Origin: Cryobacterium psychrotolerans
GTDB taxonomy: Bacteria; Actinomycetota; Actinomycetes; Actinomycetales; Microbacteriaceae
Direction: 5' to 3'
NCBI RefSeq assembly: GCF_900101115.1
Contig: NZ_FNFU01000002.1
Location: 249,971 to 313,970, forward strand
DNA: 64,000 nucleotides
Shown here: positions 50,120-64,000 of the stretch, in pieces
Layout: every line of letters begins with the position of its first letter
Position numbering within the stretch: position 1 is the first letter of the stretch
Notes under the pieces: model-generated
Databases searched by the model: none
The model's input: only the letters and a program-made list of their open reading frames with translations
Told to the model about the DNA's origin: nothing
Made by a program: the position numbers and the translations under genes

Positions 50120-51235
50120 ATGAAGGTCGCCATTCCGAAGGAGATCAAGAACAACGAATTCAGGGTCGCGATCACCCCGGCCGGCGTGTACGACCTCGTG
50201 TCCAACGGGCATGAGGTGCTCGTTGAAACCGGCGCCGGACTCGGGTCGTCGATCACCGACGAGAGCTACGCGGCGGCCGGCGCTACGATCATGCCGACGG
50301 CCGAATCCACCTGGGCCGCCGCCGAGATGCTCCTCAAGGTCAAGGAGCCCGTCGAGAGCGAGTACGTCCACTTCCGCGCCGGGCTGGTGCTGTTCACCTA
50401 CCTGCACCTTGCCGCGGAGCCGGAACTCACTCGCGCACTGCTTCAGGGCGGCGTCACGGCGATCGCCTACGAAACGGTGCAGCTGCCCTCCCGGGCGCTT
50501 CCGCTCCTCGCCCCGATGAGCGAGGTAGCCGGGCGGCTCGCCCCGATCGTCGGCGCCAACGCCATGCTCAAGCCCAACGGCGGCCCCGGCCTGCTCGTCC
50601 CCGGCGTGCCCGGGACGCACCCGGCGAAGATCACCGTGCTCGGCGGTGGCGTCGCCGGCACGGCCGCCATGCAGGTCGCCCTCGGTCTGGGCGCCGAGGT
50701 CACCGTGCTCGACACGAACCTGTTCCGGCTTCGCGAGCTCGACGCCCTGCATTACGGGCGGGTGAAGACGATCGCCTCGAACGGCTTCGAGATCGACAAG
50801 GCCGTGCTCGACTCCGACATGGTCATCGGATCCGTGCTCATCCCCGGAGCCAGGGCCCCGAAGCTCGTCAGCAACGACCTCGTCTCGCGGATGCGGCCGG
50901 GGAGCGTCCTCGTCGACATCGCCGTCGACCAGGGCGGATGCTTCGCCGACTCGCACTCCACAACGCACGCCGATCCCACCTTCACGGTGCACGGGTCGTT
51001 GTTCTACTGCGTCGCGAACATGCCCGGCGCAGTCCCGAACACCTCGACCTACGCCCTGACGAACGCGACCCTGCCGTATGTCCGCGCCGTCGCCAACCGA
51101 GGTTGGAAGGATGCCCTCCGGGCCGACCCGGCACTGGCCCTCGGCCTGAACACCTTCGACGGCGTGCTCACGAACGGCCCGGTCGCGACCGCGCACGGCC
51201 TCGAGTACCGGCCCCTGGCCGACGTCCTGGCCTGA
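50120..51235 (+). CDS. ald: Alanine dehydrogenase
   Basis: 371 residues. MKVAIPKEIKNNEFRVAITPAGV, LLKVKEPVESEY (Lys), FTYLHLAAEPELT (His), MSEVAGRLAP, the NAD loop ITVLGGGVAGTAAMQVALG, and VDIAVDQGGCFADS are alanine-dehydrogenase motifs. It interconverts alanine and pyruvate plus ammonia. Divergent from the polyamine transporter; with gabT and asparaginase it forms a nitrogen-metabolism neighbourhood. Confidence 0.95.
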   Translation: MKVAIPKEIKNNEFRVAITPAGVYDLVSNGHEVLVETGAGLGSSITDESYAAAGATIMPTAESTWAAAEMLLKVKEPVESEYVHFRAGLVLFTYLHLAAEPELTRALLQGGVTAIAYETVQLPSRALPLLAPMSEVAGRLAPIVGANAMLKPNGGPGLLVPGVPGTHPAKITVLGGGVAGTAAMQVALGLGAEVTVLDTNLFRLRELDALHYGRVKTIASNGFEIDKAVLDSDMVIGSVLIPGARAPKLVSNDLVSRMRPGSVLVDIAVDQGGCFADSHSTTHADPTFTVHGSLFYCVANMPGAVPNTSTYALTNATLPYVRAVANRGWKDALRADPALALGLNTFDGVLTNGPVATAHGLEYRPLADVLA

Positions 51236-51243
51236 GGACCGCT

Positions 51244-54180
51244 TCACTCCAGGCGAGGAGCCACGGGGAGGGACACCCGGCCCAGAGTCCCGTCCGGGCA
51301 CAGCATCCACGCGTGGCCCCTACCCGGCGCCAGCGCGGGCGGAAGCTCCCTTCGGCGGCTGATCATCCGGAAGTCGCCGACGCTGCATCCGTCGAAAACG
51401 ATGACGGCGTGGGCGCGCAGCGCGGCCATCAGCGCCCACTGCGCCTGCCACGATTCCGCATCGCCCACGAACACCGTGCCCGGCGCCGCATCGCCCGGTT
51501 CGATGCGCGCGAGCCGGCCGGGGGCCGGCGCCGAGATCTCGACGACGGTACGCCGCCCACCCGGGGCGGCCCGCAGCATCCCGGCGGCGCGGCCCGGCGC
51601 CGCGGAGACCACGAGCAGGGTCCCCGCACAGTCGAGGATCGACGGGGTGGGCGTGCCGGCGGCGAGGGGGCGGGCGCCCGGCCCGGGGTGTGGCGTCTGG
51701 ATGCGCAGGCCCTGCCAGCTTCCACCCCCGGGCGCCAGGGACGGGTCGAACAGCGCGCCGTCTCCCCCGGCGGCGAGATGGTCCAGGCGGGAGGGCATTC
51801 GCAGCAGCAATGTGGCCTGGCACAGGCCGGAGAGACCCTGCAGCACGGCGACGCGCTGCACGGCGATCACCAGGCGCAGCCCATAGGCCCGCCCGTCACG
51901 CAGCAGGCCGGCGAGCAGCTCCGCCGTCTTCATTTGGTACTCGGGTTCCCACCGAGCCCAGAGGGAATCCAGGTCGTCCAGCAGCAGCAGCCGCGCCTCC
52001 CCGGTCCCTCCGGCCGCGAGCTCCCCGTGCGCCTTCGCCAGCGCGTCCCAGGCGGCCTCGACGTCAGGGGCGACGAACTCGACCCGCTCGAAGCCCGGCG
52101 AGCCATTCGCCGCCAGCGCGTCGAGCACGGAACTCTTCCCCGAGCCGGCGCCGCCGATGACGAGCAGGTTCCCGTCGCGTTCGGGGAGGTAGCGGGCGAC
52201 CCGGTAGCGCTGCCGGTCCGGCTCGTCGAGCAGGCCGAGCAGGTAGCCTTCCCGGTCCGCCTCGCGGCCGGCATCACGCTCGGCCGCGACGGCCGCCCGC
52301 AGATCGCGCAGGGTCACCCGCGCGGGAAGCGGGTCCAGCCAGGGCCGGCGGGAGGGCGTGCCGGCCGGGGTCAGCTCGGCGATCGCGCTGATGTCGCCCG
52401 GGAGCGTTGTGGCGACCTGGCAGGGCCGGATGCCCGCCCCGGCGTCGACCAGGCAGCGGCCCGGCTGGTCCTGCGCGAGCCGGGCTGCGCCATCCGTGCC
52501 GATCACGGCGATGCTGTCCGCCCTGTTGTTGACCCGGAGCGAGACGCGCAGGCTGCAATTGGCCAGGAGGGCGTCGCGCACCACCCCGGCCGGGCGCTGG
52601 GTGCAGAGAATGAGGTGCACTCCCAGGGAGCGACCCCGGGCCGCGATGTCAACGAACCGGGCGTGCAGCCCCGGGAAGGCGTCGAGCATCGTGGCGAATT
52701 CGTCCACCACGATCACCAGTCGCGGGAGCGCCGCTGCCGGGACGATCTCCGCGATGTCGCGCGCGCCGGCGGAGCGGATGGCCTCCTCGCGGTACCTGAG
52801 TTCGGCGGTCAGGCTCCGCAGGGCGCGTTCGGCCTCCGCCGCGTCAAGGTCGGTGATCAGGCCAACGCAGTGAGGCAGTGCGCGCAGGGGGCCAAACGCC
52901 GCCCCGCCTTTGAAGTCGACGAGGAGAAAGGTGACCTGCTCCGGTGAATAACGGGCGGCCATCGCGGCCACCCAGGTCACGAGGAGCTCGCTCTTGCCGC
53001 TCCCGGTCGTGCCGCCGACGACCGCATGGGGACCGGCGGCCACGAGGTCGAGCGACACCTCGCCATCCTCGCCCACGCCGATGACGGCCTCGAGGCCCCG
53101 CCCCCCGGACGCCGTCCCCTGCCCGTGGAGCTCCCCGAGGGCGACGCTGCGAGGAAGCGGGCGCGCGTGCCGGACCAGGCCGATGGCGACGGCGGCCTCG
53201 CGGAGCGAGGCCGCGAAGCGCGCGGCATCCTCGGTGGAGACGAGCTCGGGGCGGAACCGGGTCGCCCGCGCGTGCGCGGCCGACGCGATGATCTCCGCCC
53301 TCAGCGGGCCGTGCACGCGCACGATCGTCGCGCAGCCGGGCGGCAGTTCCCCGGCCGTTTCGGCCAGCGCGATGACCAGCGGGTCCGCCCCCGATGCCGG
53401 CGAGGTGGGGACGCGTCCTTCGGTCACGACGACCGTCTGCGCGGGCGGCCCGGCGCCGGCGTGCGGAAGCACCGCGGTCCATTCCCACCCGGCTCCGGGC
53501 TCCGCCGGCAGGGCGCACCGGTCCGGCGGGTGGGCAAAACAGACCTGGACGAGCAGCCCGCGAGCGAACGCCCGGACCAGCGGCAGCGGGCCGACGATGC
53601 CGATGCCGCCCCGCGGGTCCACCGTGAGCGGGGCGTCGGACAGCGTGGCCGCCCACCGCCGCAGTTCCCGCTCCTCGGCCGTGTCCCCGGGGCCGTTCAC
53701 ACGCAACCCGCTGTCCACCTCACCCGAGCCGAGAACGACCGTCGGGCCGTGTGCCCGGTGCCAGAGACCGGCGTCGTCGGCCCCGCCCAGGATGGTGCCG
53801 ACGGCCGGCGACCGGGCCCAGGCACTCTGCCGCAGCGTCTCGTGACGTGCGGCCACGTCGGCCCGCAGGGCCTCGACCGCTGCCGCGTAGGCCCGGGCTT
53901 CGGCCCGCAGTCCGGTTCGGCGCGTGCGCCGGGCGTCGACCATGCTCGCGACCGCGATCACCGGGCCGAGGGCCGCAAAGACCAGGCTGAAGGCCGAGCC
54001 GGTGATGGCCCAGATCACGCCGGCCGCGGCGAGGGGGGCGACGCCGGCGACCAGGGGAAAACGCGCCGGGGGCGGAGCCGCTGCCCGATTCGGCAGTGTG
54101 AGCTGTTCGGCGGGGTGAATCACCTGCCAAGGAGACCAGACTCCCGGGGCCCGCGGGCGGGGACCGTGCGATGCGTTCAC
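51244..54180 (-). CDS. FtsK/SpoIIIE (EssC-type) membrane ATPase
   Basis: 978 residues from GTG 54178-54180. A cytoplasmic start (~1-40), two membrane helices (~41-80), a coiled region, then two FtsK/SpoIIIE ATPase modules: P-loop 1 GGTTGSGKS (389-397) with VIVVDEF (489-495) and LILCTQRPAG, and P-loop 2 GGAGSGKS (676-683) with LLLLDDLDSLW. The domain order matches EssC/EccC, the motor of type VII secretion, with the third module degenerate or absent. EssC carries N-terminal FHA domains; here an FHA protein is encoded just upstream. Last gene of the operon. No WXG100 gene is in the window. Confidence 0.85.
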   Translation of the reverse strand: MNASHGPRPRAPGVWSPWQVIHPAEQLTLPNRAAAPPPARFPLVAGVAPLAAAGVIWAITGSAFSLVFAALGPVIAVASMVDARRTRRTGLRAEARAYAAAVEALRADVAARHETLRQSAWARSPAVGTILGGADDAGLWHRAHGPTVVLGSGEVDSGLRVNGPGDTAEERELRRWAATLSDAPLTVDPRGGIGIVGPLPLVRAFARGLLVQVCFAHPPDRCALPAEPGAGWEWTAVLPHAGAGPPAQTVVVTEGRVPTSPASGADPLVIALAETAGELPPGCATIVRVHGPLRAEIIASAAHARATRFRPELVSTEDAARFAASLREAAVAIGLVRHARPLPRSVALGELHGQGTASGGRGLEAVIGVGEDGEVSLDLVAAGPHAVVGGTTGSGKSELLVTWVAAMAARYSPEQVTFLLVDFKGGAAFGPLRALPHCVGLITDLDAAEAERALRSLTAELRYREEAIRSAGARDIAEIVPAAALPRLVIVVDEFATMLDAFPGLHARFVDIAARGRSLGVHLILCTQRPAGVVRDALLANCSLRVSLRVNNRADSIAVIGTDGAARLAQDQPGRCLVDAGAGIRPCQVATTLPGDISAIAELTPAGTPSRRPWLDPLPARVTLRDLRAAVAAERDAGREADREGYLLGLLDEPDRQRYRVARYLPERDGNLLVIGGAGSGKSSVLDALAANGSPGFERVEFVAPDVEAAWDALAKAHGELAAGGTGEARLLLLDDLDSLWARWEPEYQMKTAELLAGLLRDGRAYGLRLVIAVQRVAVLQGLSGLCQATLLLRMPSRLDHLAAGGDGALFDPSLAPGGGSWQGLRIQTPHPGPGARPLAAGTPTPSILDCAGTLLVVSAAPGRAAGMLRAAPGGRRTVVEISAPAPGRLARIEPGDAAPGTVFVGDAESWQAQWALMAALRAHAVIVFDGCSVGDFRMISRRRELPPALAPGRGHAWMLCPDGTLGRVSLPVAPRLE

Positions 54181-54272
54181 CGGGCTGCGCCGCGCGGCGG
54201 TGGTGAGGAACGGTAGTCAGGGCCCGGCAACAGCGGGGGCGAATTCGGACGCGCGGGCTGTGGGAGGCCGGC

Positions 54273-54983
54273 TCAGCTCAGGACGAAGAACTGGTCGGCG
54301 ATGTCCACCCGGGTGCCGCGGGGAACCCGGTACCGGCGGCCGGGTTCGCACCGCAGAGCAGCCTCGCCGGGCCGGCGGATGATGGTTCCATTGCCGGAGA
54401 ACCGGTCGCTCACCCAGAACTCGCCGTCCTGCTGCCCGAATTCGAGGTGGCTCTTCGACACCGACATCCCGGTGTCCGAAATCTGGATCAAGTGGTCGAA
54501 GACCTCCGACGGCTGCGGCAGGGGTCGGCGCCCGATCAGGCCGGTGCCGCCGACCCTGGCCCGCTCCCCCGTGCTGAATTGCAGTTCGAACAGCGGCGCG
54601 CTCGTCGAGATTGATTCGGCGACGGGCCTGGCCGCCGGCGTCGCGGGTGTCAGCTCGGTCGGCGGTTCCGCCGCGGGAGGCGAGGAGAACAGCAGGTCCG
54701 TCGGCGGCTCGTCAGTGTCGATCGGCAGATCAGTGTTGATCGGCGCGTCGGTGTCGATCGGCAGATCGTTACCGATCGGCTCGTCGGTGTCGATCGGCTC
54801 GTCGGTGTCGATCGGCACGGAGATGACTGTCGGTTGCGGCGGGAGCCGCTGGATGATCGTGGTGTCGCTGGGCCGAGGGTCCGGCCTCTTGCGCGTGGCC
54901 GGTGTGGCCGTGCTTGAGCTGCCGCATTCCCCGCAGAACATGGCGCCACCGGGCAGTTCTGTCCCGCAGATCCGGCAATTCAC
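54273..54983 (-). CDS. Zinc-ribbon/FHA-domain protein
   Basis: 236 residues from GTG 54981-54983 with AAGGAG 7 nt upstream. The N-terminal zinc ribbon has C3-x2-C6 and C17-x2-C20. A linker (57-92) of six-residue repeats (PIDTDE, PINTDL) follows, coded by 18-nt repeats at 54708-54815. The C-terminal FHA domain has LIGRRPL, VSKSHLEF and FSGNGTIIRRPG, binding phosphothreonine. The Ser of the usual RxxS is in the SVSKSH segment. It probably couples the operon to a Ser/Thr kinase. The start overlaps the stop of the next gene upstream (GTGA). Confidence 0.85.
   Translation of the reverse strand: MNCRICGTELPGGAMFCGECGSSSTATPATRKRPDPRPSDTTIIQRLPPQPTVISVPIDTDEPIDTDEPIGNDLPIDTDAPINTDLPIDTDEPPTDLLFSSPPAAEPPTELTPATPAARPVAESISTSAPLFELQFSTGERARVGGTGLIGRRPLPQPSEVFDHLIQISDTGMSVSKSHLEFGQQDGEFWVSDRFSGNGTIIRRPGEAALRCEPGRRYRVPRGTRVDIADQFFVLS
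54708..54815. repeat. Degenerate 18-nt tandem repeats in the FHA gene
   Basis: About six units around CTCGTCGGTGTCGATCGG, coding PIDTDE-like hexapeptides on the minus strand; two adjacent units are identical. Confidence 0.75.
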
Positions 54984-57322
54984 GATCCGGCTCCTTCCAC
55001 GGTCCGTTTGGACGCTCCTCCAGAGTACCGGCCGAAGGAGCGCACGGAGATGAGCGCCTTCACTCGCTCCCGCCGGCTGCTGGTTCCCCGGAAGGCGGCG
55101 CGCAGTTCGCCCACGGAACCCCACACCGCATCGGCGTCTGTGTGGGCCGGTTCGTCCGGCGAGAAGAGCGCACGATCGACGACGGATGCCAGTACCAGCG
55201 ACCGCTGCCCGCCCACCGCTTCAGCGAGCTCGGTGCGGGTGGCCGAAGGAGGCACGGGAACGCGGAAGTCGGTCGCGGTGTCGGCGAAGTCCCGCCAGCC
55301 ACCGCTGATCCGGTCGGCGGGCGAGTCGGCGGCTCGCCGCAGCCGCCTCCGTCGATGCTTGGCGGCGATGATCGCCAGGAACGGGGCGAGCAGGATGAGC
55401 AGGCCCAGCAGGGTCCAGCCGAGGGCCGTCAGGGCGGCCAGCAGGAAGGCGAGCAGAGGGTGCATCGGCGCCGGCGGGTCCTCGACCGTGCTCTCGGGCG
55501 GGCTGAGGTCTCCCGGCGCGGCAGCGTCGGGGGCCGGCGGCGGTACGACGGTCTGCGGCCGGGAAACGACGGTGGGCTCGTCGGGCTGCTTGGGCGGAAC
55601 CTCCCGCACGGCGGGATTGGGGTCGATGCTGATCCATCCGTCTGCGGCGGTCTGCACCTCTATCCACGCCGATATGTCGGCGCCGGTGACGGTCACCGAC
55701 TCCCCTCCGCCCGCACTGGCCGGCACGAAGCCGACGACCACGCGGCTCGGGAATCCCAGTTTCCGGGCCATCAGGGCGGCCGCGACCGCGTATTGCTCCT
55801 GATCGCCGAGCATCGGCTGGTCCCCGAACAGCTGGGTGATGCGGTCGGCGCCGTGTCCGGATCGGCTGGCGGGCTCATCCGCATTCACGCCGTGGCTGAT
55901 GTAACCGGTCGTCCGGAGGCCCTCGAGCATCGACTGGAGCTGCACTCCGGGCGGGTCGCCGGCTCGCACGTACCCGTCGAGTGCCTGGGTGATCCCGTCG
56001 GGAATCACGCTGATCGGCGAGAGGACTTCGGTGCCCGGCCGCGCACCCGCGAGTTCGGCCGCCGGGCGGGGAAGGACCGACCGGCTCCGGTAGCTGTCGC
56101 CCTCCTGCAGTCCGCCGAGGACCGCGGCCGTTGTGCTGTTGTCGTTGTAATAGAACGAGTCGGCACGCGCCGTCGCCGAGGAGCCGAGGAATTCAATCCG
56201 CTCGAGTGCGCCGGCGCCGGGCACCCAGACACCCCGGTAGCCGTCCACGGTCACGCGCAGGGTGAGCGGCTCGCCGTCGACCTGGCCCTGGTCGATCCGG
56301 TAGGGCAGGCGCGTGAACGAGCCCGAGGCGCTGCGGACTGTGTCGCTTCCGACCGAGTAGACGATCCCGTCGTAGCTGTCGAGGGTCGCGACGCGGAGCC
56401 TGCCGCCCGCAGGCAGCCCGGCCACGGTGAGCAGGGCCCGCTCGCTCTGCTCCGGTTGCAGGTAGCCGCGGAATCCGCTGAGCGGGCTGGGATAGTCGCG
56501 CGGATCGAACGGCTGCTGCACCCGGGCGCGCAGCACGTCCCGCGGCTCCGAGACCGGCACGGCGATCGCGGCGACGGTGCCGACGGCGATGGCCAGCGCG
56601 ATGATCACCGCGGCGCTGACCAGCCCGCGGGCGGCGGCGAGCGCCCGGTCGCCGGTGGACTCGAGGGTACGGCGAGACTGTTGCGCGATGAGCCGCACCG
56701 CGGTTCGGCGTCGCTGCCAGTGCACCCACAGCAGCCAGAAGAGCAGCACGACGAACAGGCCCAGGCCACCCTCGATCGGCGAAGACTCCGCTGTGGGGCC
56801 GAGCCCGATACCGGCGATGAACAGGGCGATCGGCGCCAGCAACGCGAGCTCGGCGATCCGCGACCGCAGCGCGGCGGAGAGCCCGATCACGGTGGACAGG
56901 AGCACCAGGATGAACGCGGGCACGAGCAGGGCCTGGTACGCGCCGACCGGCAGGACGATCGTGACCAGCTGCTTCCAGCTGAGGGCGGTGGCGGCGAGCA
57001 GCTCGAGCAGGCCGTCCACAGACGGCAGGATGCGTTCAATCGCCCGCCCGGGGATGGCCAGGGGCACACCGGCGAGCAGGTACACCGCCACGGTCACCAA
57101 CGCGACGAGCCAGGCGGGCCAGCACAGGCGCGCGCCGGCTATGGCGATGGCGGCGCCCAGGGCGAAGGTCGCGGCCACGAGCACGATGAATTCGATGCTC
57201 TGGTAGACCGGCCACAGGGTGAGGGATGCCATCGCCGTCGCCGCCATCAGGGCCAGGGTGTTTCCCGCGATGAATCCCCAGCCCGGACGCGTGCCGGCGG
57301 CGCGCGGTCGCTCGGCGTTCAT
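54980..57322 (-). CDS. Transglutaminase-fold membrane protein, catalytic Cys and His lost
   Basis: 780 residues: about six N-terminal membrane helices (18-210), another near 232-256, a large outside region with a TgpA-like N-terminal part and transglutaminase core, a Pro-rich stretch, a membrane helix at about 620-650, and a cytoplasmic tail. In active TgpA-like enzymes the core reads D-C-E-x-Y/F-A and D-A-H-A-W. Here it is GDQEQYAVAAALMARKLG (Gln508 for Cys) and ADISAWIEV (Ser551 for His); only the Asp in ISIDPNP (567) remains. Thus it is probably a non-enzymatic scaffold. ATG start overlaps the DUF58 stop (ATGA). MoxR-DUF58-transglutaminase is a widespread triad. Confidence 0.88.
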   Translation of the reverse strand: MNAERPRAAGTRPGWGFIAGNTLALMAATAMASLTLWPVYQSIEFIVLVAATFALGAAIAIAGARLCWPAWLVALVTVAVYLLAGVPLAIPGRAIERILPSVDGLLELLAATALSWKQLVTIVLPVGAYQALLVPAFILVLLSTVIGLSAALRSRIAELALLAPIALFIAGIGLGPTAESSPIEGGLGLFVVLLFWLLWVHWQRRRTAVRLIAQQSRRTLESTGDRALAAARGLVSAAVIIALAIAVGTVAAIAVPVSEPRDVLRARVQQPFDPRDYPSPLSGFRGYLQPEQSERALLTVAGLPAGGRLRVATLDSYDGIVYSVGSDTVRSASGSFTRLPYRIDQGQVDGEPLTLRVTVDGYRGVWVPGAGALERIEFLGSSATARADSFYYNDNSTTAAVLGGLQEGDSYRSRSVLPRPAAELAGARPGTEVLSPISVIPDGITQALDGYVRAGDPPGVQLQSMLEGLRTTGYISHGVNADEPASRSGHGADRITQLFGDQPMLGDQEQYAVAAALMARKLGFPSRVVVGFVPASAGGGESVTVTGADISAWIEVQTAADGWISIDPNPAVREVPPKQPDEPTVVSRPQTVVPPPAPDAAAPGDLSPPESTVEDPPAPMHPLLAFLLAALTALGWTLLGLLILLAPFLAIIAAKHRRRRLRRAADSPADRISGGWRDFADTATDFRVPVPPSATRTELAEAVGGQRSLVLASVVDRALFSPDEPAHTDADAVWGSVGELRAAFRGTSSRRERVKALISVRSFGRYSGGASKRTVEGAGS

Positions 57323-58620
57323 GCTCCGGCCGTCCTGGCGAGGCTCTTCTGCAGGTCGTCGAGAAAACCGATGGTGAGCACGCTGAGCTCGGCGACGCGC
57401 CGGAGGCTCGGCACCGACTCGGGGTCGCAGACGACGGCGACGACCTCGACCCCCGCGGGGAATCGCGTCGAGGCCGCGCGGAGCTCGGCCAGTGTCGCCC
57501 GCGACCCGCAGACCAGGAAGGCAACCGAGATGCCGGCCATGCTCTCGGCAGCGGCCCGAGCCAGTCCGGCCAGGGCAAGCGCCCTCGGCGACGTCTCCAC
57601 TCGGCTCAGGTCATCGAGCAGGCGAGTTCGGGTGAGCGTGCTCAGCGTGCGGAGCGCCGGCCCCCGGCTCCGGCCGGACGCCGCGGTCTTGTCTCCCGCG
57701 ACGACGGACACGGTCCGCCCGTCGCGGATGGCGCGCACACCGAGCGATCCGGCCACGCTGACGGCCATCTCGAAGTCGTCGTCGGTCGCGTAGTCGGATT
57801 CGGCCAGGCTGAGGGCGACCATCAGGTGGCTGCGACGCGTCTCCTCGAACTGGCGCACCATGTAGGTCCCGGTCTTGGCGGTGCTTTTCCAGTGGATGTT
57901 GCGGCGCTCGTCGCCGCGGACATACTCACGCAACGCGTGAAACGACACGTCGCTGCTGGTGAGGTCTTTGGTCGGATTGCCTTCGAGGTCCCGGATGAAC
58001 CCCGTGCTCATGCTGGGGATGGAGATGGTCCGCGGGTGCACGAACAGTTCGATCCGTTCGGCCCAGACGCGCTCCTTGCGCACCAGGCCGATGGGGTCGG
58101 CGCGCACCGTTCGGACGGGGCCGACCGGGATCACTCCGCGGCGCCTGGTGGGAACGATGAACACGTCGTCGAAGCTGGAATCCCTGGCCAGGCCGGGCAT
58201 CGCGAATTCGGCCAGCCCGGCGCCGACGGGCACCTCGACGTGCACACCGGGGAGGCGCCGCCTGGTCGGATTGTGCACGACCACCTGGCCGGGAACGCGG
58301 TCGCCCACGACCACGCGGTCGACCGGCATGGCCAGGGAGATCACGTAAGCGGTGCGCCCGATCAGGTAGCCGGAGGCCGCGCCGATGAGCACGAGCCCGG
58401 CCCAGCCGACGGCGACCAGTTCGGTCCAGCCGAGGGAGTAGCCGGCGACGAAGCAGAGCACGACAACGGCGAGGATGCTCCAGCCCAGCGGGGTGACCAC
58501 CGAGCCGAAGAGCTCCGCAACCGCTCGAAGGCGCACCCCCGCGACGCGTGCGGCGCCGACCGTCCGCGCGATGGAGTCGGCCAGGCGGCCGTCCCGGGGA
58601 ACAGCGACGGCCTGGCTCAC
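57319..58620 (-). CDS. DUF58 (VWA-like) membrane protein
   Basis: 433 residues. Two membrane helices (~45-90), then an outside/cytoplasmic beta region (VHNPTRRRLPGVHVEVPVG), and the DUF58 signature VSFHALREYVRGDERRNIHWKSTAKTGTYMVRQFEE followed by a VWA-like fold (LMVALSLAES). DUF58 proteins work with MoxR ATPases as VWA-type adaptors. Part of the six-gene operon; overlaps the transglutaminase-fold gene by 4 nt. ATG start, itself overlapping the MoxR stop (ATGA). Confidence 0.9.
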   Translation of the reverse strand: MSQAVAVPRDGRLADSIARTVGAARVAGVRLRAVAELFGSVVTPLGWSILAVVVLCFVAGYSLGWTELVAVGWAGLVLIGAASGYLIGRTAYVISLAMPVDRVVVGDRVPGQVVVHNPTRRRLPGVHVEVPVGAGLAEFAMPGLARDSSFDDVFIVPTRRRGVIPVGPVRTVRADPIGLVRKERVWAERIELFVHPRTISIPSMSTGFIRDLEGNPTKDLTSSDVSFHALREYVRGDERRNIHWKSTAKTGTYMVRQFEETRRSHLMVALSLAESDYATDDDFEMAVSVAGSLGVRAIRDGRTVSVVAGDKTAASGRSRGPALRTLSTLTRTRLLDDLSRVETSPRALALAGLARAAAESMAGISVAFLVCGSRATLAELRAASTRFPAGVEVVAVVCDPESVPSLRRVAELSVLTIGFLDDLQKSLARTAGA

Positions 58621-59645
58621 ACGAGCTGCCTGTCTCCGGGCGGCGGGGTCTCGATCAGGATCTGCGCGATCACACTCGACGGGGTGACACCGTCGAATTC
58701 GGCCTCCGGGTCGAGCAGGAGGCGGTGCGCCAGCACCGGTTCGGCCAGCTCCTTCACATCGTCCGGGATCACGTAGTGCCTGCCGTTGGCCGCGGCCAGC
58801 GTTTTGGCCGTGCGGATGAGGGCGAGCGCGGCGCGCACGCTGGCACCGAGGCGCACCTCGGTCGCGTTGCGGGTGGCGTCGACGAGCCGGGCGACGTAGT
58901 CGTTGATCGTCGCGTCCACATGCACCGTGCGCGCCAGCGCGGCGAGCTCGACGACGGTGGCTGCCGACAGCACGGGCGGAACCACGACGTCGTGGGCGCG
59001 CTTGTCGGACCCTTCGAGGATCCGGATCGTGGACGCGTGGTCGGGGTAGCCGATCGACGACTTCATAATGAACCGGTCGAGCTGGGCCTCCGGCAGCCGG
59101 TAAGTGCCCGCCTGCTCGATCGGGTTCTGGGTGGCGATGACCATGAACGGGGCAGCCACGGGGTGCGTGACCCCGTCCGCGGTGACCTGTCCCTCCTCCA
59201 TCACTTCGAGAAGTGCGGCCTGCGTCTTGGGGCTGGCCCGGTTGATCTCGTCGGCCAGGACGATGTTGGCGAACACCGGTCCGCGGTGGAAGTCGAAGGA
59301 ACCGCTCCGCTGGTCGTAGATGCTCACGCCGGTGATGTCGCTCGGCAGCAGGTCGGGCGTGAATTGAACCCGGTTGCTCGTGCCGCGTACGCTCTGCGCG
59401 ATCGCGCGCGCGAGGGAGGTCTTGCCCGTGCCCGGCACGTCCTCGAGGAGCAGGTGCCCTTCGCTGAGCAGCGCCGTGAACGACAGGCGGATGACGTGGG
59501 ATTTGCCGAGCAGCACTTGCTCGACCCCGCGCACCATCCGGTCGAAGACCTCGGCGAACTGGGTGGCCTGCTCGGGGGTCATCGTCATTGCGGGGTCTCT
59601 TTCGTTGGTGCTCGTCGCGGCGGTGCTGATCGCGTTGGTGCTCAT
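58617..59645 (-). CDS. MoxR-family AAA+ ATPase
   Basis: 342 residues from ATG 59643-59645, overlapping the upstream stop (ATGA). Walker A LLLEDVPGTGKTSLARAIA, Walker B IVLADEINRASPKTQAALLEVMEE, sensor 1 MVIATQNPIEQAGTYRLPEAQLDRF, and the C-terminal lid with sensor-2 Arg (DDVKELAEPVLAHRLLL). MoxR chaperones remodel or insert cofactors into VWA/DUF58 partners. Alternative start at Met20. The 97-codon frame upstream of the start is a shadow of the giant gene. Confidence 0.93.
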   Translation of the reverse strand: MSTNAISTAATSTNERDPAMTMTPEQATQFAEVFDRMVRGVEQVLLGKSHVIRLSFTALLSEGHLLLEDVPGTGKTSLARAIAQSVRGTSNRVQFTPDLLPSDITGVSIYDQRSGSFDFHRGPVFANIVLADEINRASPKTQAALLEVMEEGQVTADGVTHPVAAPFMVIATQNPIEQAGTYRLPEAQLDRFIMKSSIGYPDHASTIRILEGSDKRAHDVVVPPVLSAATVVELAALARTVHVDATINDYVARLVDATRNATEVRLGASVRAALALIRTAKTLAAANGRHYVIPDDVKELAEPVLAHRLLLDPEAEFDGVTPSSVIAQILIETPPPGDRQLV

Positions 59646-62600
59646 CGGTCGTAGGTGTAGCTTCGGTCGGTGCCGTCGATCGGGACTGTCACCGTCAGGC
59701 GTACTGTACCGGCTGGCGGCGCCGGGCTCGGCAGGGTGCAGGTGTTCGGTGAGTCGGCATCCGTCACCGGCACCGTGGCATCCCCGGGAACGGAACACCG
59801 GTAGCCGGCCGGCAGAGCGGGCCCGTTGTCCGGGCCGTTGGTCCAGCTGAAGACTCCCCCGGCTTCGTCGTAGGCCAGGCCGGTCACGGCGAAACTGACC
59901 GATTCCTCCGGCGCGGCCCACATCGACGACCACTCACCGCAGCCGCCCCACGGAGCGCAGGCCTGGAGCTGGAAGGCGACGGTTTCGCCGAACGGGCGAC
60001 CCAGGAGCTCCCGCGGCCAGCCGACTCCCTCGAATCGCACGGTCGGTCCGGTCCCGTCGGCGGCGCGGATGTTGTAGTGGTCGACGCCCGCGGAGGGGCT
60101 CACGCGGGTAACGCGGTAGTCCCAGGCGTCTTCGCGCTGCTCCATCGCCCCGCGCACATCGGTGATCGCTCCCGGGGCCTCGCGCACCCGCACGGTCGCC
60201 ACCGGGGTGTGCGCACAGCCTGCCCGGTTGTAGCCCCAGACGATGAAGTCGTAGGTGGCGTTGGCTGCGAGCAGGTTGTCGAAGGAAACGGAACGGGTTC
60301 CGGCGGACACGGCGACCTGCTCCTCGACCGCCCCGCCGGTCTGCGGAGGGTCGAGGCGACCGGGCGCCGGGGCGCTCACCGAGCACGCCTGCGCGCCCGT
60401 GGGCACGATATCGCTGCTGAGCCGCTGCACGATGTATCCGTCGATGGGGTCGCCCCTGCCCTCGAACGCGTCCCAGGAGACGATCACGGTTCCGTCGGAG
60501 TCGGAGCCGCTCGCCGAGATCCCGCCGGCTCGAGCCGGGCCGAAGGGACGCCCCGTGCCGGCCGAACTGGCCCAGGTGGAGAGCGCGGGGTACGCCTCGT
60601 TCCGCGCGCTGACTGTGTAGGCGACATCCGCGCCGTTGCTGAGGCCGGCCACGTCGATGCTGCAGGAAGACGCGTCGCATTGCGGTCCCGTGGCGCTCAC
60701 TTCGCCCTGGGGTGTGCCTCCGACGGTGACGACGTAGCCGCGGACGGGCGTGCCCCCGCCTACGGCGCCGACAGCGTCCCAGCTGAGGCGAAGCCCGCCG
60801 TCCAGTGGTGCGGCCGCAAGCCCGGACGGGGCCGGCGGCACCACGTCGGACCAGACCGGGTCGGCCAGGGAGGTAGGCACGGACAGGCCCATGCCGTTAC
60901 GGGCCGCGACGGAGACGCGCACGGCGCGTGACTGGCCGTTGCCCGGCGTGGGGATCTCACACGCGGTCGAGGCGCACAGGACGGTGCCCACCGATGCGCC
61001 GGAACCAACGTCGGTCAGGGTCACCTCGTAGCCGGAAATCGGCGAGTTGTTGGACGCCCCGGCGTTGAAGGAGACGGACAGTTTCTGGTCGCCGAATCCG
61101 GTCACGCGCAGGTTCGTGACCGGGTCTGCCTTGTCCTGCACGGAAATCCGCACCGTGCCCCAGGCGAAGCGGTCCGGGTCGCCCGTCGCATCGGCCACCT
61201 GGTATTCGAGGTTCGTGTCGACGGGCGCGGCCGTGTCGGACACGGTCACCGCGAGGCGGCTGCTGTCGGCGCTCCGGGTGATCGAGACGCCGGCCGGGAG
61301 CGAGGCGCGATCCAGGCCGCGCACCCCGACCACGGTCAGCGGGGTCGCCGGGAACGGGTTGGTCGCGCCGTCGTTCGCGAGCACGTCGACGACGGTGGTC
61401 CGGCCGCGCGGGGCGATCGCCGCATCCGGCGCCGGAACGGCGATCGGCCTGGTCGAACCGACAACGCGCACATCGATCCGGCCGGCCTTGCCGGCGCTGA
61501 GGTCGTCCCGGACCCCGATGGTGAGCGCGCTCCGGGCGCCCTTGCGCGTCTTCAGCGCGGCACGCACGGTGAGCAGCTGACCATCGATGGAATAGCTGAA
61601 ACCCGTGGGTTTGGGTTCGAGCACCGTGTAGGCGAGCTCTGCCCGGTCGTCCGGGTAGGGGTAGGCGGTGAGTTTGCCGAGGTCGATGACCTTGGTCTCG
61701 TCCGGCTCGATGTCGATGTCGGCGCCGTCGAAGGCGGGCGGCTGGTTCGTGCGCGGCGTGACCGTGATCGGCAGGACGATGGTGGACGTGCGAGCTGCGG
61801 GGTCTTTCGCGTCGGACCCGTCGGTCACCTCGAAGGAGATAGACGCGGGGCCGTAGTACTTGTCGGCGCTGGTGAAGGCAAGGCGGCGGTCGCCCGACAC
61901 CAGGCTCGCCCCGTCTGAGTGCGTCGCCTGCACCGTGGTGCGGTCGGTGAGCTTCACGCGCTTCCCGCCGACCGCGACGACGTAGTCGTTGATGTCGATC
62001 ATGAGCGTCGACTCGCTCGGGATACTGAGCGCCGGTGCCCCCCTGCGCAATTGCGGGAGCGCGTCGTCGTAGCCGGGAACCCAGATGAACGCGTGGGAGA
62101 CGAGCTCGGGGTCGTCGGGGTGGCTGACGGCGAACGGGATGATCCGGCTGTCATTGCCGATGCTCACCCGGATGCGTTTGGCGCTCGTCACCCGGGCGTC
62201 CCGGCCGAACCCGGGCACGACCGATACGTCCAGCTTGCGGGCCGCAGCGTCGGCGAAGAAGACGTTCGCGAGGACATCGACGTCGATCGTTGTGCGGTCG
62301 AGCACGTCCGAGAGCGTGAGCCGGGTGTCGCTGGCCTCCGGCCGCGACAGCGGCGCGTCCGCCCGCACCACGACGGTGAGGAAGTTCGAGCTTGTGCCGC
62401 CCCGCTCGTTGCGGATCTCGTAGATGAAGCCCAACCGGCCCTCCGTCTCCGGCACCGTCACCGAGACGACGTCACCGTCGACCACCGCCTGCCCCTGGCT
62501 GCCGCTCGGCTTGACCGCGGTGATGGTGAGCGCGCCGCCGTCGGGGTCGGAGTCGTTGCCCAGGACCCGGACCGAAACGGTGCTGCCGGGCCGCACCGTG

Positions 62601-64000
62601 ACTTCATCGGGGGCCGCGACGGGGTTCCGTGCACCGTCCAGGCGCGGGCTGATTCCCACCCGGATCGTCCCACTCGCCCGGGCGCCGAGGGCGTCGACGA
62701 CCGAGTAGGTGAAGGTGTCCGTGCCGGTCGAGTATTCCCCGGACGTGTATTCAATCGAATCGGAGCCGCCGGTTGCGACCGAGCCCTTCTCGGGGTTGGT
62801 GTCCTGGCCGAGCAGCTGGACCGAGTCGCCGTCGGGGTCGATTCCCGAGAGCGGAATCGGGATCCGCACCGTGTTCCCCGCGAGGACACGGGCGATCACG
62901 GTTTTCGGCACCGGCGGGTTGTTGGATTCCTCGTCGGCTTCGCGCACGGAGATGCTCACCTCGGCGTTGGCGAACTGGCCGTCCGGCGCATTGACGCGGT
63001 ACACGGCGGTGAAGTTGCCGGCCATGGTCGGTGCCAGATAGCGCAGCACGGTGCCCGAGGCGAACAGCACGCCGGCTCCGCGAGGCAGGCCCGCGGCGAG
63101 CGCGGGATCCAGGGTGAGGACTTCGCCGTCCGGGTGCTCGTCGTTGGCGAGAACCGGGATATCGATGGCGTCGCCGACCCGCACCGAGATGGTGTCCGCC
63201 GTGGCGATGGGGGCCTGCTTGCGCGCCGGCTCCGCGATCTCGACGACGGTCACCGTCCCCTCGGCCTCGGCCAGGCCGTTGCTCACCCGGTAGCCGAATG
63301 TCACCTGACCGGCGTCGAGTGGTTTCGTGAGCGTGAGCCGCAGCAGATGCTGGTCGAGGATCTCGACCCGGAGACCGCTGGCCGGGGCCACGTCCATCGT
63401 TCCGGTGACGAGCAGCACCCCGCCGGCGGGGTCGAAATCGGTGGCGAGCACGTCGACGACGGTCGACTGACGGCCGCGGATGAACGCCGTGTGCGGCACC
63501 GTGACGGGTTTGGTGTTCGACTCCGGCGCGGGAACGACCTCAACGCGCACCCTGCCTGTCGCCGTGGTTCGACCGTCCGTCACCGCGTATTCGACCTCAT
63601 GGGTGCCGACGACGTTGCTGGTGAAACGGAACGTGCCGCCGTCGAAGGACGGGGTCACGGTGACGTCCGGTTTGGCCGGGACGCTGCTCAGGCGAAGCGG
63701 GCCGGATCCCCCGCGCACATGGAGCAGCGGGGACACGGTCATCTCCCGGCCCGCGGCGGCCAGCACGACGAACGGCTCGGCGATGATGGGAACGGCTCCG
63801 GCCGGACGAACCGTCACGGCCATCGTTCCGGCGCCGGCCAGCCGCCCGTCCGAGACGACCAGGCCGACCTGCTTGAGCTCGCCTCCGCCGCCGGCGTCCG
63901 TGTAGATCACCGACCCCTCCGGGGTGAAGCTCGCCTGGTCCGGAGGGGGTGCTGTCGCCGAGGTGAGGTAGAACGGATCGCCGTCCGGGTCGATCCAGTC
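59642..64000 (-). CDS. Giant Ig-like/cadherin-like and FN3 surface protein, 5' end outside window
   Basis: The frame is open through the window edge, so at least ~1,452 residues of the C-terminal part are here (the GTG at 63910 is internal). It is built of tandem ~90-residue Ig/cadherin-like units with the calcium-type signature D-x-D-P-D-G (NDEHPDGEVLTL, SGIDPDGDSVQLLG, NDSDPDGGALTI), each beginning PVA..D.V.VR.G. The last ~450 residues are several FN3 domains (PVTNLRVTGFGDQKLSVSF, APSGLAAAPLDGGLRLSWDA). No LPXTG sorting signal or C-terminal helix is seen. Probably an extracellular stalk or adhesin exported or assembled by the genes that follow it. Confidence 0.85.
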   Translation of the reverse strand, partial: DWIDPDGDPFYLTSATAPPPDQASFTPEGSVIYTDAGGGGELKQVGLVVSDGRLAGAGTMAVTVRPAGAVPIIAEPFVVLAAAGREMTVSPLLHVRGGSGPLRLSSVPAKPDVTVTPSFDGGTFRFTSNVVGTHEVEYAVTDGRTTATGRVRVEVVPAPESNTKPVTVPHTAFIRGRQSTVVDVLATDFDPAGGVLLVTGTMDVAPASGLRVEILDQHLLRLTLTKPLDAGQVTFGYRVSNGLAEAEGTVTVVEIAEPARKQAPIATADTISVRVGDAIDIPVLANDEHPDGEVLTLDPALAAGLPRGAGVLFASGTVLRYLAPTMAGNFTAVYRVNAPDGQFANAEVSISVREADEESNNPPVPKTVIARVLAGNTVRIPIPLSGIDPDGDSVQLLGQDTNPEKGSVATGGSDSIEYTSGEYSTGTDTFTYSVVDALGARASGTIRVGISPRLDGARNPVAAPDEVTVRPGSTVSVRVLGNDSDPDGGALTITAVKPSGSQGQAVVDGDVVSVTVPETEGRLGFIYEIRNERGGTSSNFLTVVVRADAPLSRPEASDTRLTLSDVLDRTTIDVDVLANVFFADAAARKLDVSVVPGFGRDARVTSAKRIRVSIGNDSRIIPFAVSHPDDPELVSHAFIWVPGYDDALPQLRRGAPALSIPSESTLMIDINDYVVAVGGKRVKLTDRTTVQATHSDGASLVSGDRRLAFTSADKYYGPASISFEVTDGSDAKDPAARTSTIVLPITVTPRTNQPPAFDGADIDIEPDETKVIDLGKLTAYPYPDDRAELAYTVLEPKPTGFSYSIDGQLLTVRAALKTRKGARSALTIGVRDDLSAGKAGRIDVRVVGSTRPIAVPAPDAAIAPRGRTTVVDVLANDGATNPFPATPLTVVGVRGLDRASLPAGVSITRSADSSRLAVTVSDTAAPVDTNLEYQVADATGDPDRFAWGTVRISVQDKADPVTNLRVTGFGDQKLSVSFNAGASNNSPISGYEVTLTDVGSGASVGTVLCASTACEIPTPGNGQSRAVRVSVAARNGMGLSVPTSLADPVWSDVVPPAPSGLAAAPLDGGLRLSWDAVGAVGGGTPVRGYVVTVGGTPQGEVSATGPQCDASSCSIDVAGLSNGADVAYTVSARNEAYPALSTWASSAGTGRPFGPARAGGISASGSDSDGTVIVSWDAFEGRGDPIDGYIVQRLSSDIVPTGAQACSVSAPAPGRLDPPQTGGAVEEQVAVSAGTRSVSFDNLLAANATYDFIVWGYNRAGCAHTPVATVRVREAPGAITDVRGAMEQREDAWDYRVTRVSPSAGVDHYNIRAADGTGPTVRFEGVGWPRELLGRPFGETVAFQLQACAPWGGCGEWSSMWAAPEESVSFAVTGLAYDEAGGVFSWTNGPDNGPALPAGYRCSVPGDATVPVTDADSPNTCTLPSPAPPAGTVRLTVTVPIDGTDRSYTYDR

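What the first reader, a model, noticed from the sequence alone, without database searches (positions are those of the whole stretch)
51244..64000. Six-gene operon: giant Ig/FN3 protein, MoxR, DUF58, dead transglutaminase, FHA, split EssC-like ATPase
All genes run on the minus strand; four of the five junctions overlap by 4 nt and only the FHA-ATPase gap (92 nt) is open. MoxR-DUF58-transglutaminase is a known membrane-remodelling triad (family knowledge). Here it is coupled to an FHA protein and to a two-P-loop FtsK/EssC-type motor, with a >1,450-residue tandem-Ig/FN3 protein as first visible cargo. In Firmicutes EssC the FHA domains are fused to the motor; here they are separate but adjacent. 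I infer a phosphorylation-controlled envelope assembly or secretion system distinct from standard type VII secretion, since no WXG100 gene is seen. The combination may be undescribed.
Basis: partly seen in the sequence, partly recalled or inferred. Interest (0 to 1): 0.72.

Follow-up and report, generated by a model that had tools for sequence, protein, structure and literature searches.

The report
Compact type VII secretion operon
A conserved bacterial operon joins a kinase-controlled cell-surface module to a shrunken protein-export motor whose likely small partner protein is encoded elsewhere in the genome, pointing to a possible secretion system that has gone unrecognised in this bacterial family.

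Summary
The six genes are real and arranged as described; beyond the window the operon continues with a Ser/Thr kinase, a PP2C phosphatase and a second FHA gene. Kinase–FN3–MoxR–DUF58–transglutaminase is the gene order of the published bifidobacterial PFNA operon. The last gene is a type VII secretion ATPase (EccC/EssC class), shortened to 978 aa, with no fused FHA domain and a reduced C-terminus. In 28 of 40 loci (38 genera of the family, chosen for having this motor) the order is kept. Elsewhere in Actinomycetota the same Ig–MoxR–DUF58–TG block precedes a full-length EssC and a WXG100 gene. Over 150 family genomes this orphan and the short motor are both present in 105, both absent in 36, discordant in 9. 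Eleven operons read in motor-less genomes all keep the core and lack motor and orphan. Best reading: a phosphorylation-gated, reduced T7SSd-like system with its WXG100 in trans. Secretion is untested, and core and motor can occur apart. The transglutaminase lacks the catalytic Cys in 54 of 54 relatives.

The parts
51244..54180 (-). compact EccC/EssC-class ATPase, 978 aa: N-terminal membrane helices, stalk/DUF domain, intact first ATPase domain, second domain with P-loop, reduced C-terminal domain
54273..54983 (-). FHA2 protein (weak zinc ribbon + FHA), GTG start overlapping the TG stop by 4 nt
   Evidence: in a full-length relative an FHA domain is fused to the motor
54980..57322 (-). TgpA_N/transglutaminase-core membrane protein without catalytic Cys and His
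57319..58620 (-). DUF58 protein
58617..59645 (-). MoxR AAA+ ATPase (342 aa from ATG 59645)
59642..64000 (-). giant tandem Ig/cadherin-like/FN3 protein, 1965 aa in full; its start lies outside the window at 65539

Best explanation
The operon encodes a reduced type VII-like secretion system. The compact EssC-class ATPase is the inner-membrane motor; its main client or partner is the single WXG100 protein encoded in trans beside groEL. The kinase, PP2C phosphatase and two FHA proteins gate it: FHA2, whose counterpart is fused to the ATPase in full-length relatives, would dock the motor onto phosphothreonine-marked components. The PFNA core forms the envelope part: the anchored 1965-aa Ig/FN3 rod reaches through the wall, and MoxR with DUF58 and the non-catalytic transglutaminase-like membrane protein assembles or remodels it. 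Shown here: anatomy, class of the motor, conserved linkage, co-occurrence with the WXG100. Inferred: secretion, phospho-gating, the role of the core.
For: Motor class. Linkage: 28 of 40 loci with Ig-MoxR-DUF58-TG-motor in the same order and strand, 26 of these with an FHA2 match. Same block before a full-length EssC and a WXG100 match in Actinospica, Aeromicrobium (2), Lentzea, Pseudoclavibacter and Microbacterium allomyrinae (6 of 49 distant named loci), and near full-length EssC and WXG100 in five genomes of the family. WXG100: 28 of 28 genomes chosen for a short motor and no second motor match have at least one over the curated cut-off, none at the motor locus; response regulator-histidine kinase-WXG100-groEL neighbourhood in 20 of 21 loci (own-genome neighbours by Pfam); W43xG45 and Y83xxxE87 invariant in 20 of 20; TIGR03930 over its cut-off; ESAT-6 nearest solved relative. 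Co-occurrence 105 both, 1 motor only, 8 orphan only, 36 neither of 150. Motor-less operons: 11 of 11 read are in genomes without the orphan; 5 parsimony changes of motor state on a 41-tip core tree.
Confidence: 0.65

Rival explanations
1. The core is a PFNA-type envelope-sensing module, and the motor module (PP2C, FHA2, ATPase, WXG100) is a functionally separate type VII system that merely shares the transcription unit and the kinase/phosphatase.
For: Motor away from the core in 12 of 40 loci; core without motor in the 11 motor-less genomes read.
Against: Order kept in 28 of 40 loci, and the same core precedes full-length EssC in other families.
Confidence: 0.24
2. The ATPase is not a protein exporter but an envelope-assembly or DNA motor, and the WXG100 correlation reflects shared ancestry.
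For: No secretion test; compact C-terminus; second-domain lysine kept in only 16 of 26 (counted from its listing); FtsK fits the first ATPase domain well.
Against: EccC/EssC match over membrane, stalk and both ATPase parts, FtsK rows only about 323-617; motor-less tips without the orphan fall in several places on the core tree.
Confidence: 0.09
3. A decaying remnant without function.
For: Reduced motor, non-catalytic TG, motor remnants in two dwarf genomes, a motor split in two frames in one Cryobacterium (L224).
Against: Walker A lysine and Walker B DE of the first domain kept in 26 of 26 aligned motors at 33-54% identity to the window's.
Confidence: 0.02

Closest known systems
PFNA operon of Bifidobacterium (pkb2-fn3-aaa-atp-duf58-tgm, with prpC and fha in some species)
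   Same: Kinase, FN3 protein, MoxR, DUF58, TG in the same order; PP2C and FHA as further genes (PMC8430577 and PMC6803598, passages)
   Different: The term FtsK occurs 0 times in both papers; here PP2C and FHA1 stand upstream of the kinase; sequence homology to the bifidobacterial proteins not tested
T7SSd (Garrett, Higginson and Palmer 2024)
   Same: EssC-class ATPase, Ser/Thr kinase, giant Ig-domain protein, no ubiquitin-like protein (PMC11217815, section 9 and passages)
   Different: WXG100 in trans; FHA not fused; compact motor; PP2C, FHA1, MoxR, DUF58 and TG are not among the five T7SSd core parts
EccC of T. curvata / EssC of Firmicutes
   Same: Membrane-stalk-ATPase chain, EccC best structural match
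   Different: About 500 residues shorter than the full-length relatives read here (1467-1512 aa in six of seven), FHA separate, C-terminal domain reduced

Membership tests
Type VII secretion system | EccC/EssC-class membrane ATPase | tested here: met
   but below NCBIfam's curated cut-off for EssC (274.5 of 778.4 bits), as might be expected of a motor lacking parts
Type VII secretion system | WXG100 gene in the genome | tested here: met
   one over the cut-off, G000:C21:36469-36750, unlinked
Type VII secretion system | WXG100 gene inside the cluster | tested here: not met
   the own genome's only hit over the cut-off is on another contig
Type VII secretion system | ATPase-dependent export of WXG100 | not testable with these tools
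   needs experiment
T7SSd | kinase and giant Ig protein beside the ATPase | tested here: met
   orthology to TsdD and TsdI not tested, and no C-terminal TM helix was looked for by a tool
T7SSd | FHA domain fused to the ATPase N-terminus | tested here: not met
   the short motor begins at about position 226 of the full-length profile; no FHA hit in it; FHA is a separate gene
T7SSd | four NTPase domains in the ATPase | tested here: inconclusive
   stalk/DUF, first and second ATPase domains present; C-terminal domain reduced, weak profile match
T7SSd | TsdH small one-TM protein | not tested
   not looked for
PFNA operon | gene order kinase-FN3-MoxR-DUF58-TG | tested here: met
PFNA operon | orthology to the bifidobacterial proteins | not tested
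   no bifidobacterial locus was fetched

The most novel reading that the evidence does not exclude
PFNA and T7SSd are two descriptions of one actinobacterial machine: a kinase/FHA-gated type VII system with a MoxR-DUF58-pseudo-transglutaminase-assembled Ig/FN3 rod. The operon in this family is its stripped form, with FHA split from a compact motor and the WXG100 moved beside groEL: a functional secretion system in bacteria thought to lack type VII secretion.
Probability: 0.45. Interest if true: 0.78.

Novelty: new variant of a known kind. Interest (0 to 1): 0.6.

Why it matters
It would give a bacterial family an unrecognised secretion system, help explain why PFNA genes travel together, name a partner for an orphan WXG100 protein that is widespread in the order, and offer a minimal motor with FHA in trans for testing how phosphorylation gates type VII secretion. 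One paper on a member of the family states that the organism 'has no type VII systems' (PMC6106888, passage). A held genome whose single contig has the chromosome length given in that paper's abstract (G030, 1,760,810 bp; identity inferred from length alone) has the orphan WXG100 (121.6 bits) and a short-motor match (286 bits over positions 11-699), though my gene finder did not recover that motor as one gene.

Tried and rejected
WXG100 inside the operon: the own genome's one hit over the cut-off lies on another contig. YukD: none in the own genome. FtsK identity: rejected on sequence and on the non-D1 parts. 'C-terminal ATPase domain simply missing': first thought, withdrawn; the tail may be a shrunken third domain, supported only weakly (hhalign probability 5.9, E 0.0064). 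'Orphan WXG100 is private to the short motor': rejected at order level. Genes beside the motors in several loci look like Tad-pilus genes by size pattern only; not tested. The bifidobacterial TG active site was not tested; Iyer et al. 2004 on FtsK-HerA is not held.

Absence from print rests on searches of one open library, whose lists are capped (12 of 325 shown, 15 of 28); none of the listed papers was seen to link PFNA or MoxR-DUF58-TG with T7SS. PMC8191103 (passages) has MoxR and DUF58 in an expression table and WXG100 and T7SS only in its references. PMC7159879, on MoxR conflict systems, has no 'WXG' or 'type VII' and its FtsK, FHA and FN3 passages concern other systems (passages).

Short motors were classed by hand: 95, 11, two of these (G067, G027) on partial matches; remnants in G010 and G092 counted as no motor. 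Only up to 5 candidates per genome were scored, 15, 2, and the match lists are cut; the genome tallies are not. In the tree the outgroup bore a motor label; one search recounted the ingroup. The two split loci L114 and L116 count there as motor-bearing because their genomes have the motor elsewhere. The 11 motor-less operons were picked from the 36 'neither' genomes by good giant-protein matches; four of the eight orphan-only genomes (G010, G013, G039, G066) were searched too and have no giant-protein match at 1e-20.

Full report
What is there. The window is part of a 3.25-Mb draft genome (contig C34:249971-313970). The six minus-strand genes are confirmed with their overlaps. The contig shows the rest: the giant gene is 1965 aa long from GTG 65539 and overlaps the kinase stop by 4 nt; then come a Ser/Thr kinase (454 aa from the start my gene finder chose), a PP2C phosphatase and a 353-aa FHA protein, followed by an aldehyde dehydrogenase. 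Downstream the ATPase ends 8 nt from a convergent alanine dehydrogenase gene. Reading the translations, the kinase keeps HRDIKPSN and DFG, PP2C its DGMGGH, and both FHA domains GR, SxxH and NGT (motifs recalled; sequences), so the phospho-relay looks intact.

Linkage. Of 150 genomes of the family I class 95 as having the short motor and 11 more. At E 1e-80 it was seen in no genome outside the family in a phylum sample (6 of 396 matched, all in the family, own genome included). Forty loci from 38 genera were taken (chosen because they have the motor). 28 of 40 hold Ig/FN3, MoxR, DUF58, TG and motor in the same order and strand; 26 of the 28 also have the FHA2 match. In 12 the motor stands away from the core: 10 keep PP2C nearby, 2 show none of the other genes; one of the 12 (L067) has diverged DUF58 and TG matches some 13 kb off. 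In a sequence scan of named genomes (best 80 of at least 581 kept) short-motor holders include Cryobacterium, Planctomonas, Rhodoglobus, Mycetocola, Leifsonia, Agromyces, Clavibacter, Plantibacter and Microbacterium.

The same block in fuller systems. In five genomes of the family (G002, G043, G050, G123, G141) a locus with a 1496-1512-aa EssC and WXG100 genes of about 98-104 aa also holds giant Ig, kinase, MoxR, DUF58, TG, PP2C and FHA genes, as far as the fetched stretch reaches (WXG100 by Pfam in all five). Among 49 more distant named loci (L239-L287), MoxR and DUF58 lie within the flank held of a full-length EssC in 6 (Actinospica, two Aeromicrobium, Lentzea, Pseudoclavibacter, M. allomyrinae), in two short-motor loci, and two more show part of the block; 39 show none (flanks up to 10 kb, less on short contigs). 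All six also show a WXG100 match; those in Actinospica, Pseudoclavibacter and Lentzea are weak profile hits of 18-21 bits. This is my basis for reading the window operon as a reduced relative of a PFNA-core T7SS.

The missing WXG100. The own genome has one WXG100 over the curated cut-off, on contig C21. Of 28 genomes chosen for a short motor and no second motor match, 28 have one or more over the cut-off, none at the motor locus; 26 have exactly one at E 1e-3, G048 has three and G100 two. 21 WXG100 loci (the own one and 20 fetched) were compared: in 20 it lies with a response regulator/histidine kinase pair on one side and groEL on the other (in the own genome a GDPD gene intervenes); the other (L136) is a different WXG100. 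Aligned, W43, G45, Y83 and E87 are invariant in 20 of 20. YxxxD/E is the reported T7SS signal, and the C-terminal pattern resembles that of PMC3935865 (passages). In the listed rows a profile of it splits the family cleanly: 90 bits or more for 113 genomes, 57 or less otherwise.

Co-occurrence. 150 genomes: both 105; motor only 1 (G061, 75% complete); orphan only 8 (G010, G013, G039, G066, G081, G092, G095, G144: six genomes of 1.1-1.7 Mb, one 83% complete, and G066, 97% complete and unexplained; G010 and G092 keep a motor remnant); neither 36. Fisher p 1e-25, not corrected for ancestry. As a partial correction, 11 operons of motor-less genomes were read: all 11 have the Ig-MoxR-DUF58-TG core, none a motor in the stretch read, and those genomes lack the orphan at 90 bits. 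On a tree of the concatenated core (41 ingroup tips) they fall in six groups with 5 parsimony changes (shuffled mean 9.8, minimum 6 of 500, so absence is clustered). Two nested placements, L117/L193 and L192, have parent support 1.0; that of L195/L196/L198 is weak (0.175), and the remaining groups branch deep and could be ancestral absence. So core and motor can part, whereas motor and WXG100 seldom do in this family.

Against. In the order as a whole 246 of 297 genomes have an orphan-like WXG100 at E 1e-6 and 277 of 297 some match to the motor profile at 1e-35, in the listed rows outside the family mostly in frames above 1100 aa; 0 of 20 fetched examples showed the core beside the motor. The orphan is therefore a general partner of such motors at most, not evidence of a private pair. 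Nothing here shows secretion.

The transglutaminase. In an alignment of 54 relatives, including full-length-EssC loci and other families, none has Cys at the catalytic position (Q, A, E, G or D instead); His is kept in 4 (L106, L108, L109, L112) (positions from the recalled motif). The protein is a pseudo-enzyme across this set, perhaps a scaffold. Whether bifidobacterial TGM has the Cys was not tested.

Known or new. PMC8430577 (passages) calls the PFNA genes unique to bifidobacteria; it and PMC6803598 (passages) do not contain the term FtsK. T7SSd: PMC11217815 (section 9 and passages) lists WXG100, FHA-bearing ATPase, kinase, TsdH and giant Ig protein; the search listing counts no MoxR, DUF58 or transglutaminase in it. 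No listed paper was seen to join the two. I therefore call it a new variant of a known kind.

Noticed in passing
L118:10470-10760 (own genome C21:36469-36759): Orphan WXG100 gene beside groEL; orthologue-like matches in 246 of 297 genomes of the order.
   Followed up: yes
L099, L101, L102, L105, L107, L114, L116: Giant Ig/FN3 proteins occur in up to three places per genome; most of those read have MoxR-DUF58-TG next to them, L107 does not.
   Followed up: partly
L175-L179, L181, L184, L187-L190: In other families of the order an EssC-type motor sits beside a run of genes whose sizes resemble a Tad pilus locus; identity not tested.
   Followed up: no
L217:4772-12718: A second FHA2 plus a motor fragment upstream of the complete FHA2-motor pair in Microbacteriaceae bacterium VKM Ac-2855.
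   Followed up: no
L202, L203: Two 1.4-Mb genomes keep the orphan WXG100 but only 318/338-aa motor-like frames.
   Followed up: partly
window:48671-49972: Extracellular solute-binding protein gene (SBP_bac_8) on the minus strand, beyond the alanine dehydrogenase gene at 50120-51235.
   Followed up: no
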